A stretch of DNA of 64,000 bases from positions 434,001 through 498,000 of the forward strand of contig NW_026251395.1 in assembly GCF_025118155.1 (NCBI RefSeq). The letters run 5' to 3'. This stretch comes from Cokeromyces recurvatus (lineage: Eukaryota > Mucoromycota > Mucoromycetes > Mucorales > Mucoraceae). Each line of letters starts with the position of its first letter. The first letter of the stretch is position 1. The notes below the pieces were generated by a model. It saw nothing but the letters and a program-made list of their open reading frames with translations. It searched no databases and was not told where the DNA came from. A program made the position numbers and the translations under genes. Positions 4,018-21,065 of the stretch are shown in pieces.

Positions 4018-4419
4018 TTATGTCGCTACCAAATGATAATGATGTAATTCTGGATCAGGAGTGCCTGGTACTGAAATTGAATATTTTGATTTAATAGTTG
4101 CTTTATAAGGTAATCTACTCAATGATAATGATGCTGAAGAAGGTAGATTATTTTTTCTTCTTATAACAATAGAGGGTCGTTCATGATTTTCTTTTTTTAT
4201 ATGTAAATATCCTTTTATTCTTTCTATACACGTTGATAATAACCAATTTGTTGATTCAATTGTTAAATCTGATATTATTTCAATTCCAAGTAATGTTAGT
4301 CTAAAGAATATAAAAGAAGAAGTAATCGTACTCGTGATTATCGCTAAGATTGCCAAAAATATAACAACTAATAATATAAATGGCGTAAACAATACACATC
4401 CAATTGTTGATAATTGCAT
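4018..4419 (-). CDS. Small predicted membrane protein, 133 residues
   Basis: A single open frame of 133 residues. Residues about 5-45 are strongly hydrophobic (two segments around FILLVVIFLAILAII and SSFIFFRLTLLGI), so it is probably anchored in a membrane. The C-terminal half is polar, with a basic IRRKNN stretch and a PGTPDPELHHYH tail that reads like a conserved, structured end. I do not recognise the family. The stop codon is 9 bases from the stop of the convergent KPWE gene, so the two transcripts must overlap in their 3' untranslated regions. It could be a false gene, but the clear hydrophobic/polar division argues for a real one. Confidence 0.6.
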   Translation of the reverse strand: MQLSTIGCVLFTPFILLVVIFLAILAIITSTITSSFIFFRLTLLGIEIISDLTIESTNWLLSTCIERIKGYLHIKKENHERPSIVIRRKNNLPSSASLSLSRLPYKATIKSKYSISVPGTPDPELHHYHLVAT

Positions 4420-7284
4420 CTAATATATAATAAAAATAAGGAAAAAGAAAAGAAAAGGAAAAGAAAAGAAAAGAAAGGAAAAGACAGGTTTTATATCTTC
4501 ATATTAAATAGAAACTACTACTGTAGGAGGATATAGATATTTGTATCACATGCAGCATTTGTTATATTCTTCCGATCTGACCCAACTGTTGTGAGACATT
4601 CTGATAGTAAGAATATTCATATTACATAAACATTCATGTTATATCTAGTCATTTATTACTAAAATCAAAGAATATATCTTCTTCTTGTCTTAATGAATAA
4701 GAAGTCTATATGTCCAACTTGACATAATATAAAGTCTAATCTATCCGAGAAATTTTAATAATACAACACGGATTATAAAAATTGATACTTTGAAAACACT
4801 TTATAAATACGTGTCTCTTATTACAGTCAATGCTTTAAACGTATTATTAAATTTAACTATCGACTGCAGTTTAATAACTTTTAGCCATTGTTTAGGAATG
4901 CTAGTCATGTATGCATTATTTCCCTTCTTTAATCATCTATTTTAGTATTACGGATAAATATACTCAGAAAAATATATCTTCTTTTGTTGAATATAATAAT
5001 AATAAAATTAAAAGAGGCTAATCATTTCCTCCTTTCTTTAGCCACTCGTGTCACTATTTCTTGGTCTCTTCTCCTTACTCTCAAAGAATCTTGAAGAATT
5101 AAATGGGGTTTTATTATATCTCCTAAAAAAGCAGCATATTATAAAATAGGGGGAAACTATTTTACTAAATCAGATATTCTTTTTTCTTTATCAGTACCCA
5201 TGGTTTTCTTATGTTCAGATGAATACTTACTATATAAATAGAATGGAATTTTTTGAAAGCATATTAATAATACTAATTAAGCGCTGCTTTACGAAAATAA
5301 AATAAAATAAATATGCTTGGAGACATTTAAGAGAAATGTAAATTTATTTATATCTTCTTGTTTAGTCTACAATCTGAAGTCATAGCAAATATTTTTAATA
5401 ATTTTTTTTATCTGTAAACAATTATCAATAGTGGGAAGATATTTAATTCATTATTTCATGAAGCATATGTTATAATGTAAAGAAAAAAAAATAGTACATA
5501 CTACATTTAACTTAGTTTCAATATTCTTAGTTATTCTGATAATGAAATGCACTCTTAATATGAGTTTCTTACCCTTTCAAGTCCAATACACATTTGAATT
5601 ATCTATTATCTATTTTCTTTTCTTTTTCGTCTGTACTCCCAATATAATAATAGTTCTGGGATTTGTATATAAAAGTTTAATAGAAACTTTTAGAAGGAAT
5701 TGTTAATTTCTAGAATTTATGATACAGAGTCCTTATTATTAAAGCAGTCTTTTAATACCCTTGTTTCAAATTTAAATTACTTTACTTATGCAGCTTTGCT
5801 ATCTTGTGTATATTTAAATACATTTGTATAAATGTATAAAGTGATGTATTTTAGTTGTAAAGGGAAAAAAATGATTCTGATAAAAATAAACTCGATTGGA
5901 TATATTTCCCTTGTAAGGAGAAGCGCATAATATAGGATAATACATAAATGCATCTTCTAACCTTTTTACTACTATTATTCAATATGTAAAATCTTGACAA
6001 ACCAATTATGGTAATTTTATATGTATTTATTATAATATGCAAGTAGGATTATGTGCATTGCATTATATTATATTTCTTTCTTCCTTTCATATCTTTTTGT
6101 TTGTCTGTATACATATATACTAATAAGAAAGAAAAGGATTCTATAGTAAAGTAAATATGAAATCATATAAACAGTGATTTTAATCGACTATGTTATCTTA
6201 CTTAGAGAATGAAGGGATGTTATTATTAATCATAACTCTCTTTCATTACCTATGTATATTATCATAAATCATATGTATGTAGTATATATGCATGACATAC
6301 TGCTTAAGGAGAAAATTACAATCACTTATAATAATAGTTTAAGAGCTTTGATAATTATATTCGAGGTCTATAATATCAAATCAATAATAATGTAATCGAG
6401 ACTCTGTAATTGACTCTGAATTATACAGTATACCTTCATATGAAGATATGAATATATATTAAATAACTCCTTCATGTAAAATGTCAGTTACTGTATATTT
6501 AAACATGAGAATATGTATTTGATATATAAGAAAAAAAAAGAGTATTCACGTTATTAGATATATACATTGATTATTGAACATGTATGCATATATGTATGTA
6601 TGTATGTATGTATGTACATATGTGAATAATTTCTCAGTCGTGACACTAAACAAATACTCTTTAAAAATTCTAAAAATGGTAAAATTATACTATTGTTACT
6701 GTCTGCTTACAAGGTTCTTTTTATAATATATTAACTTGTATTTTTACATACAAGTCTCTCTCTCTTATACAAAATAAAATACATATTTGTGAACATATAT
6801 ATCCAATAATACCTTGATTTACTACAACTAACTTATTCAAAAGAAATATATGTACATGGACAATCTTCGGATATCTAATATAGTTTAATGCACCTTTTTT
6901 TTTTCTATTTTTTTTTAGTCAATTTTTCTTATTAAAAGGAATAGCTATATAATCTTTAGTGGGCTCATTTATGATATCTGTTTATAAATGTACTCATAAA
7001 ATTTATAATTTGCCTAAATTTGGGAATTTCTTTCTTTACTGTATAAATTAAGAAAATTTATAAAATATAAAAGGCAATTACCCCTAAATTTCCTTGTTAT
7101 TATATCTTTAAATAGAAAGTCTTTTATTCATTAAAATTTACCTTTTTTTTTCTTTTTCTTTTTATTAACATTATCAATATTTTTCTTTTGTAATAAGTCA
7201 CTTGTAAATTATTATCGGTAAGAAATTAGAAAGAGTATATATATATATATATATATTTATATATCTTTTTTCTAAAATTCTATT
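4420..7284. other. 2.9-kb gene-poor region
   Basis: Very AT-rich, with stops in all frames at short intervals. It holds a purine run at about 4437-4487, a TATG microsatellite at about 6596-6616 and a TA run just before the next gene at about 7237-7255. No tRNA, rRNA or coding exon was recognised. It may include a long promoter for the Myb-like gene at 7285. Confidence 0.4.
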
Positions 7285-15697: not shown

Positions 15698-15840
15698 TAT
15701 GTATTTATATTAGGAAAAAAAAAATAAATAAAAAAAATAAAATAAAAAAATTAAATATGTAAATGCACATGACAACATAAAAGTATCATTAATTAAAATA
15801 ATTCAATTTACGTACGATATGCAAAAAAATCATTTTATTA

Positions 15841-16814
15841 CAGTGAGCACGGTAAAATTTGACATTTTGAGAAAATTAAATGTCCGTAACCAAAAAAAAA
15901 AAAATGGATGGCACTAAGCCAAAAATGATTATTCCTTGATGTCTAGAAGCCTTGTTCTTTTGAAACGTTACAATAAGTTAAATCAAATTGATCTGAATAA
16001 TGATATTTATTTCTTGACTTCAAAGCAATTAGTAGAATGAAGTTTTATTATAACATTGAATGATTTGTCGTTTATAATAGGGTAACTGTTTGGACAGCTT
16101 TTGTCTTTTGTCCATTGCTTGAGAAAGACCCTAATGCATTATTAATTATCTTTCTTTTGTTCTATAGTTTACAAACCGAGTGTTATGCGGAACTGAATTG
16201 TTTTATATACCAATGTTACGGAAGATGTGATATAGGTCCATTCATCGTATAAAAGGATTTTTTATTGAATGTTTTTTTTTTTCTGCAAATCGAGGATACA
16301 AATGCGTGTACTTGCCACCTTATTCCCCTGAATTAAATCCTATAGAACAATTCCGGTCAGCTGTTAAGAGTAAGCTCAAGAGACAATCAGATTCTCGAAG
16401 AAAAAACTCTGCAAGACTGTATCACTGAAGCGTGTAGCCAGGTTCCTCAGATTCATCTTTATGGTTTTGCTAAGCATTCCCATTCGTACTTAGAAGATTG
16501 CTTGAATAAAAAAGCCATTTAAGATCTTTCTGATAAGCAAGATCTGAAAATATTTCTCATATAACTGTAATCAACTAACACTACATGTTCCAGATGAGTA
16601 TAACTAATTCGATGTATATTAAACAAAAATGTAAATGATTAAGTTAGGAATCTTCATGGTTGACAATGATGGGCACAGTGAGATCACTACTAAAACAACA
16701 AGACAAGTAAAATTTTAAAACGCAACTTGTTGATATGAAAAGACTGTATAACGTTTTATAAAAACGTTTTTTTTTTTTTATATTCATTTTAAAAGTAATC
16801 ATAAAACGTGTACG

Positions 16815-16847
<33 letters not shown>

Positions 16848-16894
16848 TTGTATTTATTTGAACATAGGAGTGAAATGAGGGCACTTGAGGTATA
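15841..16894 (+). repeat. Left long terminal inverted repeat arm
   Basis: This 1,054-base arm is repeated in inverse at 19276-20328. Stretches compared base by base (for example 16067-16127, 16248-16310 and 16369-16428 against their partners) are identical except for run lengths: A13 against A14, T11 against T10, T13 against T12, and nine against seven CA units. The match ends at GGCACTTGAGGTATA. Confidence 0.9.
16289..16522 (+). pseudogene. Transposase C-terminal fragment (DDE_3) in left arm
   Basis: Translation gives RGYKCVYLPPYSPELNPIEQ followed by KSKLKR, the last catalytic block of Tc1/mariner-type DDE_3 transposases with the final acidic residue in NPIEQ. Near 16388 the frame shifts; the expected tail resumes as ILEEKTLQDCITEA and ends AFAKHS-like with a TAA at 16520-16522. 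The N-terminal DNA-binding region and the first two catalytic Asp are absent. The identical break is present in the other arm, so it predates or was copied between the arms. Confidence 0.8.
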
Positions 16895-16917
16895 TATATT
16901 GATAGTAAGTTGTTTGC

Positions 16918-17527
16918 TCAGTAGTTTGTTTTACGTCTTTTGATTTGACCTTCTTTCGAACGAATTTCTGCTCGTAAACAGTGTATGGCTGCCTCATGCT
17001 CGTGAATTTTACTTTCTAAATCATCAATATATGCTTCCAGCAAGATAATTTTAACTTTATTGTCGTTTAACATGGTAGGCGTGACTATGATTTCTGACGG
17101 GTTCAATACTGGTTGTGGGTTAGATACTGATGGTGGGCTCGATATTGGTGGTGGATTTGATACTGGTATGTTTAAAGGGATTTCATAAGAGATTGGCCTT
17201 TTGTTCCAATCAATGGATGCCAATACCCTCGTGTTTTTTCCTTCATCAAGCTTTTTATTTCCATATCGCTGGAAGAATCTGCAAGCATTCTCCCTTGTAG
17301 CGAAATGTAGAAACCCATATCTAGAAAAATATACAACAAAAGCAATAAGTACAATGAAATTCCGTTATTTTGAATACTTACGGTTTATCTTTTAAGAACT
17401 TGAAATGTTGAAAGGGTACAGCAAGATTAAGATTTCGGAGCCATGATTCGATGCTATTAGCAAGGTCATTACAGTTAATTTCTGTTAACGTAACCGAAAG
17501 GTTACGATCAGTACAGCAAATTTCCAT
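16918..17527 (-). CDS. RRM-like plus coiled-coil protein, cargo of the palindromic element
   Basis: A two-exon gene (17527-17382 and 17320-16918), in phase across a 61-base intron, encoding 182 residues with no disabling change. Residues about 8-85 look like an RRM fold: LSVTLTEINCNDLANSIESW as the first strand and helix, and YGFLHFATRENACRFFQRYG as an RNP1-like strand followed by the second helix. A Pro/Ser-rich linker with repeated SNP-P units follows (about residues 102-124). Then comes a heptad-patterned coiled coil (about 132-170, LLEAYIDDLESKIHEHEAAI and onwards) and a basic tail KRRKTNY. The domains suggest an oligomeric RNA-binding protein. I do not recognise the family. It lies wholly between the two inverted arms, 23 bases from the left one. 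Confidence 0.7.
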
Positions 17528-17695
17528 TGTTGTAGTCAAGCTTAAAAGTAATAGCTTTTTTTTTCCAACTCTTGGCTATCTCTACTCCGTCTAATAGCCA
17601 AAAAGGACAAATTTTTAAAGAGATTTTATTGAATGAAAGAATTCTTAGTACGTCTTTTGTTTTTTTGTGGAATTTATGATAGACATTTTACATGC

Positions 17696-18913
17696 CACTG
17701 CAAAAAATTTGTCCGTCGTACGTATGGAGTACTATATAGCGTACGCGCGTACGACGTATAGCTTTTTACATTTGATGGGTTATTTCTTTGAAAACCATGA
17801 ACCATCATTGGTATTTTGCAGAATAAATCGCTTTTGAAATAATAGTAAAAAAAAGGATATTCCTTGCAATTAATAATAGAAAATAGGATTACACTTACCT
17901 TTACATCTTTAAAAAGAAATAGTACAATTACGTAGTAAATAGATACAAATAAATAAGAGAAAAAGACAGAGATAATAATGATAGGGGTCTAGGAAGCTAA
18001 ATTATAACAGTTAAACAGAAGCAAACAAACAATCTATAATAAACAAAATTGATTAGTTAGTAAATAAAAAAATAAAAAAGAGTATTGGTATTCAAAAGAA
18101 TAAAATGCTTACCGAATAAAAGGTAAGGTTGGTATATCTTATATTAGACAAAGAAAGTATACTTTTGGAATTAACAGATAAATGTTATGTTTATTTTACC
18201 TTTTTATATACATTTATTTACCTGTTTAAAACGTGTTTGATTAAAGATAATAGACAAGTTAGTATATGTGTTAATATGAACAATAGTTATTATCTTACCT
18301 TTAGCATATCACTGAAAAATGCTCTGTATAAAAAGTAGAAAAAGCTACTACCAACATAAACAAGACTCTTTTGCTAAGAAAGAAATAAAACTGGTCAGTA
18401 TAAATTCGTTAATAAGAATATTCTAAATCTTTATACTACCTTGAATATAATAAATATCTATAGAAAATAAAACAATTGTAAGTAAATAAGTATTAATCTA
18501 AAAGAATAAAAAAGAAATAACAATGAATGTGGAAAGCTAGTAATTTTCTTAACTTTCCCTATGATCATATGATTTTCTATAGATCCATTTTTGGAAAAAA
18601 AAAGTGTTTTTTTCTGCTGTAATTTCACAATGCAAATAGTGTGATTACTTTTTCTTTTTCTCTCCCTGTAAAAAAGACACAGCCAAAATAGCTGTAAATT
18701 TAAATATTAAAAAAATAATGATTATTAACAATAGAAATGTCTTTTTTTTTTATATATATTTATTCTATGATATTATATTGAACATAATATATTTTTTATT
18801 TGGAAGTTTTATTTTAAAAATTAGTAGAAATAAACAATTAAAAAAACCGCTGCTAAAATTGTAGCGTACGACGTATAAAAGTACTATCCGTCGTACGCCA
18901 ACTTTTCGCAGTG
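17696..18913. repeat. Nested 1.2-kb inverted-end element with CGTACGACG subterminal palindromes
   Basis: Inside the larger element, CACTGCAAAAAATTTG at 17696 faces AACTTTTCGCAGTG ending at 18913, an imperfect inverted pair. Just inside each end are two oppositely oriented copies of CGTACGACG: CCGTCGTACG near 17713 and GCGTACGACGTA near 17747 at the left, GCGTACGACGTA near 18864 and CCGTCGTACGCC near 18888 at the right. Both ends also share a central GTACTAT. The interior is AT-rich with no recognisable gene. No clear target duplication was seen, so the exact ends are uncertain. Confidence 0.55.
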
Positions 18914-19275
18914 ACACAGCCACACTACAAAACATATAAAAAGGGGTGAATATTCAGAATTTCAATAAATTATCCTTTCTCTGTCCTCTGTGGCAGCCTT
19001 CTCCTTATCTTAACGATAATGAAAATGAAAAAAAAAATTACATTAATTCTTGCAATTGTGTTGAATCTGATTTAACCTGTTTTCACGCTGTTTCCAGTCA
19101 AAAGTACGATTATCTTGCTTGACTAGTTGTGGATTCAAAGTTGTAATAAATAGAACTATGTATATTTATCTCTTTTTTTGAATACGTTTTCATTCCAGTT
19201 CTTTTTTAATCAACTTTACCGTCAATTCGTATTTATTATGGCTGACGTCGCTTATAAACTTTTTCTTTTGAAATG
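18914..19275. other. Unassigned segment of the palindromic element
   Basis: Between the nested repeat and the right arm. It has no open frame with recognisable motifs; a short frame beginning near 19178 runs out into the microsatellite of the right arm and is not called. Confidence 0.4.
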
Positions 19276-19322
19276 TATACCTCAAGTGCCCTCATTTCAC
19301 TCCTATGTTCAAATAAATACAA

Positions 19323-19355
<33 letters not shown>

Positions 19356-20328
19356 CGTACACGTTTTATGATTACTTTTAAAATGAATATAAAAAAAAAA
19401 AACGTTTTTATAAAACGTTATACAGTCTTTTCATATCAACAAGTTGCGTTTTAAAATTTTACTTGTCTTGTTGTTTTAGTAGTGATCTCACTGTGCCCAT
19501 CATTGTCAACCATGAAGATTCCTAACTTAATCATTTACATTTTTGTTTAATATACATCGAATTAGTTATACTCATCTGGAACATGTAGTGTTAGTTGATT
19601 ACAGTTATATGAGAAATATTTTCAGATCTTGCTTATCAGAAAGATCTTAAATGGCTTTTTTATTCAAGCAATCTTCTAAGTACGAATGGGAATGCTTAGC
19701 AAAACCATAAAGATGAATCTGAGGAACCTGGCTACACGCTTCAGTGATACAGTCTTGCAGAGTTTTTTCTTCGAGAATCTGATTGTCTCTTGAGCTTACT
19801 CTTAACAGCTGACCGGAATTGTTCTATAGGATTTAATTCAGGGGAATAAGGTGGCAAGTACACGCATTTGTATCCTCGATTTGCAGAAAAAAAAAACATT
19901 CAATAAAAAATCCTTTTATACGATGAATGGACCTATATCACATCTTCCGTAACATTGGTATATAAAACAATTCAGTTCCGCATAACACTCGGTTTGTAAA
20001 CTATAGAACAAAAGAAAGATAATTAATAATGCATTAGGGTCTTTCTCAAGCAATGGACAAAAGACAAAAGCTGTCCAAACAGTTACCCTATTATAAACGA
20101 CAAATCATTCAATGTTATAATAAAACTTCATTCTACTAATTGCTTTGAAGTCAAGAAATAAATATCATTATTCAGATCAATTTGATTTAACTTATTGTAA
20201 CGTTTCAAAAGAACAAGGCTTCTAGACATCAAGGAATAATCATTTTTGGCTTAGTGCCATCCATTTTTTTTTTTTTTGGTTACGGACATTTAATTTTCTC
20301 AAAATGTCAAATTTTACCGTGCTCACTA
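19276..20328 (-). repeat. Right long terminal inverted repeat arm
   Basis: Inverse copy of 15841-16894 (1,053 bases). It starts at TATACCTCAAGTGCC and ends CCGTGCTCACTA next to TA. It differs from the left arm by run lengths in simple repeats and by the outermost base. Confidence 0.9.
19648..19881 (-). pseudogene. Transposase C-terminal fragment (DDE_3) in right arm
   Basis: Mirror copy of the fragment at 16289-16522. It encodes the same LPPYSPELNPIEQ block on the minus strand and carries the same frameshift, so it is also non-functional. Confidence 0.8.
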
Positions 20329-20340
20329 TATTATTTCAAT

Positions 20341-21065
20341 TGACGATAATATTTATGACCCTCGTGCTTTTGCTGGTATCTGTAAAGCATACCTGAAAGA
20401 TAATCTTGGTGATCGACGAAACAGTAAGAATGCCGTTCTCTTGTCTGCTTGCCGTCCTACCCTAGGTATCGATCCTATCCTCTGGTTACCTATGTCAAAT
20501 GCAGAACGCAGCCGAATAGTCCGCTGGCGTCTAGGTTGGTTACCTGGTGGTGCCCCTAAACCGAGCATCTATCACCCTAATGCCTTGTTCACAAGATCTC
20601 ATGCTATATGGTGCCTACATATGCATCGACGACTACAAATGCCTTTGAGCGAACCCAACCCTTTGTCCTTCCTCTTGAATAAGCTGCCAAATAAACAAAA
20701 ACGCAGTCCATCAATCTCATCAGCTTTCAACTTGTCTGTCTTTTCCGCCTAGACGATTCGTTAGCCTTCTATGTGCCTTATACTTTTTGAACTTGACTAT
20801 CTCCATCATGGTAAACTTCCTCCAGAAACTGCACCCCTCGGTACAAAACTTGTAAACTGGTTACATAACTCTGAATCTAGTATTTATTGATATATCTTAC
20901 TTTTCCTCTTCCCTTCTCTTTCTTTTTTACCCTTTTGCCTATCAAAAGGTTTTTTAGTACACTTTTATCCTTTCTCGAACTGACCCGGGCAATCCAATAT
21001 GCCAGTATTATGTGCTCACATGGGTTGTTTAAATTTTTGTTATAAATAAAATAATTCTTAATCAT
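20341..21065 (+). mobile_element. 5'-truncated LINE (non-LTR retrotransposon) 3' fragment
   Basis: The frame from 20341 reads DPRAFAGICKAYLKDN, then RWRLGWLPGGAPKPS, then TRSHAIWCLHMHRRLQMPL and LSFLLNKLP. The C-H-H spacing and the LSFLLN-LP block are as I recall from the ORF2 C-terminus of LINEs in Mucorales. The frame breaks near 20700-20755 and continues as LFELDYLHHGKLPPE. The 3' untranslated region has CTATCAAAAGGTTTTTTAGT, CTGACCCGGGCAATCCAATA and AATAAAATAATTCTTAATCA; the same blocks occur at 52743-52862. The reverse transcriptase core is missing. Its 5' limit abuts the right end of the palindromic element. Confidence 0.75.

What the first reader, a model, noticed from the sequence alone, without database searches (positions are those of the whole stretch)
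15841..20328. A 4.5-kb palindromic Tc1/mariner-type element with 1-kb inverted arms and an intact cargo gene
The sequence shows TA on both sides, ends CAGTGAGCACGG / CCGTGCTCACTA, and two inverted arms of 1,054 and 1,053 bases that match almost perfectly. Tc1/mariner elements normally have inverted repeats of tens to a few hundred bases and one transposase gene. Here the whole transposase is absent except for a frameshifted tail in both arms, and the centre holds an intact intron-containing gene. This looks like a non-autonomous, gene-carrying element whose layout I do not recognise.
Basis: partly seen in the sequence, partly recalled or inferred. Interest (0 to 1): 0.85.

Follow-up and report, generated by a model that had tools for sequence, protein, structure and literature searches.

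The report
Fungal jumping gene with mirrored ends
In a mould of the order Mucorales, a worn-out Tc1-type jumping gene that surrounds a small intact gene has about a thousand bases of one end repeated, mirror-wise, at the other end; this is real, but the same kind of end-copying is already described for the fly element Galileo.

Summary
In detail: a TA-flanked 4,488-bp unit (15841-20328) with 1,054- and 1,053-bp inverted arms that differ by two substitutions and three 1-bp indels, and an intact two-exon gene inside. The host is Cokeromyces recurvatus (Mucorales). The ends belong to a Tc1-like family; of 19 end matches in the assembly, four inward-facing pairs form, none enclosing an intact transposase. 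Two other pairs are also long-armed (about 529 and 487 bp), with different inner arm sequence. In a tree of the terminal 250 bp (17 ends) the two ends of each long-armed element are sisters. Both window arms share changes absent from a partial copy on C1. The arms were therefore recently copied from one end to the other; the left, gene-side end is the likely donor. Each arm carries two transposase tails, one pointing outwards and one inwards. Half of the centre is a nested ~1.2-kb dispersed repeat. The gene's protein is weakly RRM-like with Mucorales homologues; the three places matched in this genome all lie next to Tc1 remains. Galileo (P superfamily) shows the same recruitment of inner sequence into long inverted repeats, so this is a new variant of a known kind. 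No empty site was found.

The parts
15839..15840 (.). left flanking TA (putative target-site duplication)
   Evidence: read directly
15841..16894 (+). left inverted arm, likely donor; contiguous with the gene as in the C1 copy
15841..16078 (+). family terminal region (TIR proper), shared in whole or part at about 69-82% with several other ends in the genome (93% with C1)
   Evidence: pairwise hits
16035..16079 (-). 15-codon remnant of the family's own transposase C-terminus, pointing outwards
   Evidence: tblastn of the C14 member's tail, 11 of 15 identical, E 3.6e-5 in a search of the 4.6-kb element
16288..16522 (+). frameshifted Tc1-type transposase tail pointing inwards (NRGYKCVYLPPYSPELNPIEQF...)
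   Evidence: its subtype is not settled
16918..17527 (-). cargo gene, exons 17527-17382 and 17320-16918, 182 aa, weakly RRM-like; C-terminal third looks like a coiled coil (by eye)
   Evidence: homologues; sub-threshold Pfam hits
17321..17381 (-). 61-nt GT-AG intron
17694..18916 (.). nested dispersed repeat of about 1.2 kb, matched in whole or part at 20 or more other places, CACTGC ends
18917..19275 (.). sequence between nested repeat and right arm, without other match; may hold what is left of the original right half
   Evidence: no other match (query ended at 19270); second half of the statement is inference
19276..20328 (-). right inverted arm, likely the copy
19647..19881 (-). mirror copy of the inward-pointing transposase tail
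20089..20133 (+). mirror copy of the outward-pointing transposase remnant
20329..20330 (.). right flanking TA
   Evidence: read directly
20337..20700 (+). adjacent part of a multi-copy, LINE-like repeat (not part of the element); homology starts at about 20335-20340
   Evidence: 38 other matches; LINE nature judged by eye, not tested

Best explanation
This is a dead (non-autonomous) member of a DD34E Tc1-like family of Cokeromyces recurvatus. Members share roughly 170-280 bp at their ends. Just inside one end this copy held a stub of the family's own transposase, a second, inward-pointing transposase tail, and the RRM-like gene. A double-strand break in or near the other end was then repaired from the element's own opposite end: the two similar inverted ends paired, and synthesis ran from the tip inwards for about 1,054 bp, past the terminal repeat into former inner sequence, before joining to the remaining centre. 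The result is an element with two copies of the same end and near-perfect arms. Shown: arm identity, changes shared by both arms against C1, per-element pairing of ends in a tree, continuity of the left arm with the gene in the C1 copy, and two more long-armed elements with other arm contents. Inferred: the break, the templated repair, its direction, and that the gene is a passenger.
For: Arms differ by 2 substitutions and 3 indels, while C1 differs from both together at 77 alignment columns (47 substitutions in 1,046 aligned arm bases). Tree of the terminal 250 bp from 17 of the 19 end hits: window ends sisters (0.999) on a 0.048 branch after the C1 split, C20 ends sisters (0.961), C12 ends sisters (0.742). 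C20:200920-206333 has 529-bp arms at 99.6% and C12:1314156-1317135 arms of 487 columns at 93.8%; both share only about the first 180-215 bp with the window arms. The C20 arm is found at full length only at its own two places. In C20 transposase homology continues beyond the right arm but not beyond the left, again one end placed on the other. Left arm and gene are contiguous in C1. A repair model of this kind is proposed for Galileo (passages of PMC3573991).
Against: No intermediate is seen. The C1 copy is truncated in exon 1, so its lost half could have carried a second arm; the palindrome may then be older than the C1 split and only homogenised later. Direction of copying rests on that one half-copy. 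No empty site was found, and the right flank turns into a truncated repeat about 5-10 bp outside the TA, so the right TA could be a coincidence. Three long-armed elements are few, and the support for the C12 pair is modest (0.742).
Confidence: 0.68

Rival explanations
1. The palindrome is an older, inherited structure that transposes as a unit; the arms stay alike by gene conversion between them rather than by a recent first duplication.
For: The C1 copy shares arm plus gene with homology ending at the terminus; it is truncated, so a lost second arm is possible. Arm identity alone cannot separate first copying from conversion.
Against: Only one palindromic copy with this inner arm sequence was found (lower-bound searches); arm contents differ in each of the three long-armed members.
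Confidence: 0.2
2. Composite origin: two copies in opposite orientation, or ectopic recombination between two copies, joined two like ends around a shared centre.
For: The family has dispersed ends (19 matches) and the genome has many Tc1-type transposase matches (184 to DDE_3).
Against: The arms are nearly identical to each other and clearly different from every other end found, C1 included; two separate donors would not give that. No inner ends are present.
Confidence: 0.06
3. Assembly artefact: one arm wrongly duplicated by the assembler.
For: No reads could be inspected.
Against: Different flanks, different inner junctions, five differences between the arms including a substitution at the first base of the end, and two more long-armed family members with other arms. 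The contig continues on both sides.
Confidence: 0.04
4. The inverted arms serve as a hairpin source of small RNAs that silence Tc1 transposases, comparable to Mu killer in maize (recalled, not searched).
For: Both arms carry transposase tails in mirror orientation.
Against: In one search, apart from C1 and simple-repeat matches, the inner arm has one other match in the genome, 84 bp at 80% (40 of 140 candidates scored), so there is hardly a target; a 2.4-kb spacer with a nested repeat separates the arms; transcription is unknown.
Confidence: 0.02

Closest known systems
Galileo 2RT copies (two extended or recombinant TIRs), P superfamily, Drosophila
   Same: Non-autonomous copies with very long TIRs (1,107 bp by recruitment; 1,260/1,241 bp with recruitment plus tandem repeats), inner sequence present inverted at both ends (TIR1-F1-F1-TIR2), pieces of the transposase ORF and of foreign elements inside both TIRs, a break-repair model (PMC3573991 passages; PMC4168063 section 10).
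   Different: Other superfamily and target duplication (7-8 bp, not TA); 170 and 191 copies in two fly genomes; no intact host-like gene mentioned in the passages seen.
CreTc1 and other Tc1 elements of Mucorales (PMC5630946)
   Same: Same host species; Tc1-like; long TIRs (CreTc1 1,672 bp, TIR 218 bp, 60 copies; passages).
   Different: One transposase between ordinary TIRs; no 1-kb arms or cargo gene in the passages seen. Whether the present family is CreTc1 was not tested.
Bari elements with identical long TIRs, Tc1/mariner, Drosophila (PMC4877112)
   Same: Tc1/mariner elements whose two roughly 250-bp terminal repeats are identical (abstract and passages).
   Different: TIRs a quarter of the length, around a transposase gene.
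Tc4 and Tc6 foldback elements of Caenorhabditis elegans (recalled; one search, brought nothing on them)
   Same: Long near-perfect inverted repeats on Tc1/mariner-related, non-autonomous elements, as recalled.
   Different: Short loop, no cargo gene, multi-copy, as recalled.

Membership tests
Tc1/mariner superfamily | insertion at TA with TA duplicated | tested here: inconclusive
   TA on both sides of the window unit and of the C20 and C12 members, but no empty site
Tc1/mariner superfamily | family transposase with DDE catalytic domain, DD34E for Tc1-like | tested here: met
   members C20, C11 and C14 carry broken relatives of a DDE_3-type transposase running towards the same end; spacing of 34 counted by eye in the related C40 ORF printed
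Tc1/mariner superfamily | transposase in this copy | tested here: not met
   only two tail remnants per arm; non-autonomous
Tc1/mariner superfamily | family-specific terminal inverted repeats | tested here: met
   19 end matches at up to 3 mismatches against 1 for the reversed control pattern
Galileo-type TIR extension (works like) | inner, non-TIR sequence recruited into both arms | tested here: met
   arms run past the shared terminal region into transposase tails and gene-flanking sequence
Galileo (member) | P-superfamily transposase and 7-8 bp target duplications | tested here: not met
   DDE_3/Tc1 relatives and TA flanks
RRM proteins | Pfam RRM_1 above gathering score | tested here: not met
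   window protein 11.9 bits and Mucor flavus homologue 14.3 bits against cut-off 20.7; RNP1-like YGFLHF motif is recalled; structure model of the homologue has pLDDT 43, not usable

The most novel reading that the evidence does not exclude
The RRM-like gene is not a chance passenger but an accessory gene of a mobile lineage that carries it between places, and perhaps between Mucorales genera, with end-copying as a regular way in which this Tc1 family rebuilds damaged ends. The three places matched in this genome all lie beside Tc1 remains. In the last 47 residues the gene tree does not follow genus: one Mucor flavus protein shares 38 of 47 with Cokeromyces but 31 of 47 with M. circinelloides, which in turn shares 42 of 47 with Rhizopus delemar; old paralogues would explain this too.
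Probability: 0.1. Interest if true: 0.6.

Novelty: new variant of a known kind. Interest (0 to 1): 0.36.

Why it matters
It shows that extension of terminal repeats by copying inner sequence from one end to the other, including pieces of transposase ORF (called so far unique to Galileo in PMC4168063), also happens in a fungal Tc1-like family, and that it can leave an intact gene inside. Three long-armed elements with different arms in one 28-Mb genome make a compact system for asking how inverted ends are repaired and homogenised. It does not overturn anything.

Tried and rejected
Empty site: the joined flanks found no contiguous site; the one match that ran across the joint (C47) proved to be A-rich low complexity on the left and the dispersed repeat on the right. 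Autonomous partner: none of the four inward-facing end pairs encloses an intact transposase. One unpaired end (C45) has an intact 477-aa Tc1-type ORF starting 237 bp outside it, on the wrong side. C11/C28 looked autonomous at first, but their nearly intact, frameshifted transposase belongs to a nested 2-kb element with other ends. Twenty transposase loci (L046-L065) and the C23 gene-homologue locus were scanned for the end at up to 8 mismatches of 26, with weak hits only (best 6 mismatches, C30, whose left tip is related and right tip degenerate). I first called the inward tail a foreign subtype; (79% over 33 aa to the C11 nested type, 81% over 36 aa to C1:703 kb, 62% over 34 aa to the own-type relative at C40) leans that way, but the own-type C14 tail matches its last 40 residues best (45%, against 37% over 43 for C11), so I leave the subtype open. 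Structure of the cargo homologue: low-confidence model, no fold search made. Transposon origin of the extra N-terminal part of the Sporodiniella homologue: one weak match here, undecided. Papers: one search returned nothing; one search returned three, of which I opened PMC5630946; one search returned five, of which I opened that same one; I found no account of long-armed Tc1 elements in Mucorales, which is a thin search.
Full report
What is there. The unit 15841-20328 is flanked by TA and begins CAGTGAGCACGG; its right end reads CCGTGCTCACTA, so its outermost base differs from the left end. Arms 15841-16894 and 19276-20328 are inverted copies. A three-way alignment with the C1 copy shows two substitutions (15841 and 16831) and three single-base indels (15891, 16272, 16767) between the arms, and 77 columns where C1 differs from both. 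These arms are the only inverted repeat of at least 120 nt found in the whole window with 18-base seeds.

Host. The protein encoded by the gene is held as 'uncharacterized protein BX663DRAFT_432901 [Cokeromyces recurvatus]' on a contig of 889,340 bases, the length of our contig C64. Taxonomy: Mucorales. The assembly has 28.05 Mb in 64 contigs.

The family of ends. The pattern TACAGTRAGMACGGTAAAWTTTG with up to 3 mismatches gives 19 sites, against 1 for the reversed control pattern. Eight of the 19 form four inward-facing pairs less than 6 kb apart: the window, C12 (about 3.0 kb), C20 (about 5.4 kb) and C63 (166 bp, a MITE-like palindrome). The other 11 have no partner at that stringency. The first three pairs have long arms: 1,054 bp, 487 columns and 529 bp, with 99.4, 93.8 and 99.6% identity. 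Window and C20 arms share about the first 180 bp, window and C12 arms about the first 215; beyond that no match was reported. None of the four pairs encloses an intact transposase; one unpaired end (C45) has an intact 477-aa ORF just outside it.

Arms were copied within each element. A FastTree tree of the first 250 bp of 17 of the 19 ends (I left out the C45 end and the left end of the 166-bp C63 palindrome before building it) joins the two ends of each long-armed element as sisters: window 0.999, C20 0.961, C12 0.742; the window pair sits on a branch of 0.048 after the split from C1 while the two arms are almost at zero distance. Changes in the tip (GAGCACGG where C1 and most others have GAGAACGG, TTTGACATTTTG where C1 has TTTGTCACTTTG) are in both window arms (alignment). 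Window and C1 differ at 47 of 1,046 aligned arm bases. The last copying is therefore much younger than the C1 split.

Which end was the donor. C1 (1354597-1356142) has the same terminus, the same arm and then the 3' part of the gene without a break, in the order of the window's left half; homology stops within a base of the TA outside, and inside exon 1. No second end was found in the 7-kb C1 locus. In C20 transposase homology continues beyond the right arm but not beyond the left. In both cases one end with its neighbouring inner sequence seems to have been placed on the other end. For the window this rests on one truncated copy.

Two transposase tails per arm. The family's own enzyme, judged by C14, C20 and C11, ends just inside the terminus and points outwards. 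The window keeps 15 codons of it, 20089-20133 (+) and its mirror 16079-16035 (-), 11 of 15 identical to the C14 tail. Its first 33 aa are nearer to the transposase nested in C11 (79%) than to the own-type relative at C40 (62% over 34), but its last 40 aa match the own-type C14 tail better (45%) than C11 (37% over 43); its subtype is open. The C11 transposase belongs to a nested 2-kb element with other ends, a truncated relative of which lies in C20.

The centre. The gene (ATG 17527, stop 16918, 61-nt intron) is intact. Bases 17694-18916 are a dispersed repeat matched in whole or part at 20 or more other places, up to 98% identical over 801 bases to a C63 copy. 18918-19270 has no other match.

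The gene. Two searches gave 4 and then 12 proteins; the seven that bear an organism name are Cokeromyces, Rhizopus delemar RO3G_11925, Mucor mucedo, M. flavus (two), M. circinelloides and Sporodiniella umbellata. Pfam RRM_1 is below its cut-off, so RRM is a suggestion only; the coiled coil is judged by eye. The deposited models P0001, P0003 and P0004 lack the nine residues around YGFLHF that the M. flavus model P0005 has; the window's upstream acceptor keeps them. In this genome one search matched C64, C1 and C23 only. C1 is cut in exon 1 and broken. C23:684922-685451 is diverged (70-79%) and lies beside a Tc1 tail, but also near ordinary-looking coding sequence, one stretch resembling a ribosomal protein (by eye). 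Between window and C1, exon 2 (21 of 387 bases differ) is no better kept than the inner arm (38 of 791), so no selection is seen on that branch.

Flanks. The right flank from about 20335-20340 is part of a multi-copy LINE-like repeat (38 other matches, 40 of 55 candidates scored); the left flank matched only itself apart from an A-rich stretch at C47, and no contiguous empty site was seen. Insertion of this copy by transposition is therefore likely from its ends and TA, not proven.

Comparison. Passages of PMC3573991 and section 10 of PMC4168063 describe Galileo copies whose TIRs grew by recruiting inner sequence, transposase ORF pieces and foreign elements, the longest being non-autonomous, and propose repair of a break from the other TIR. 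The window unit works like that but belongs elsewhere. Passages of PMC5630946 report Tc1 elements with 218-bp TIRs in this very species; abstract and passages of PMC4877112 report Bari elements with identical long TIRs. Passages of PMC8277862 describe gene capture in TIR elements by gap filling and template switching, a plausible route for the gene's entry, untested here.

Verdict. Real, not an artefact as far as sequence can tell, and well explained as end-copying in a dead Tc1-like element with a passenger gene. New variant of a known kind.

Noticed in passing
L010 1421-6834 (C20:200920-206333): A 5.4-kb long-armed member of the same family holding a left-truncated nested Tc1 element (92% to the C11 one) and further coding-like stretches (4273-5274) of unknown nature.
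   Followed up: partly
L011 1157-4136 (C12:1314156-1317135): A 3.0-kb long-armed member whose centre holds a dispersed repeat also seen in L009 2685-3296 and, in part, in L069.
   Followed up: partly
window 17694-18916: Nested dispersed repeat of about 1.2 kb with CACTGC ends and CGTCGTACG-rich termini, 20 or more other places; its class was not determined.
   Followed up: partly
window 17320-17294: The deposited gene model P0001 lacks the YGFLHFATR stretch, as if spliced 27 nt further downstream; the R. delemar and M. mucedo models show the same loss, M. flavus P0005 does not.
   Followed up: partly
L013 445-2476 (C11) and L014 (C28): Near-identical copies near the ends of two contigs (99.9% over 1.5 kb next to the family end), each with a nearly intact Tc1 transposase; in C11 it lies in a 2-kb element with about 97-bp TIRs.
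   Followed up: partly
C63:514115-514280: A 166-bp MITE-like palindrome with ends of the same family.
   Followed up: no
C45:1126558-1127918 region: Possible 1.4-kb family member with two weak inward ends, next to an intact 477-aa Tc1-type transposase ORF.
   Followed up: no
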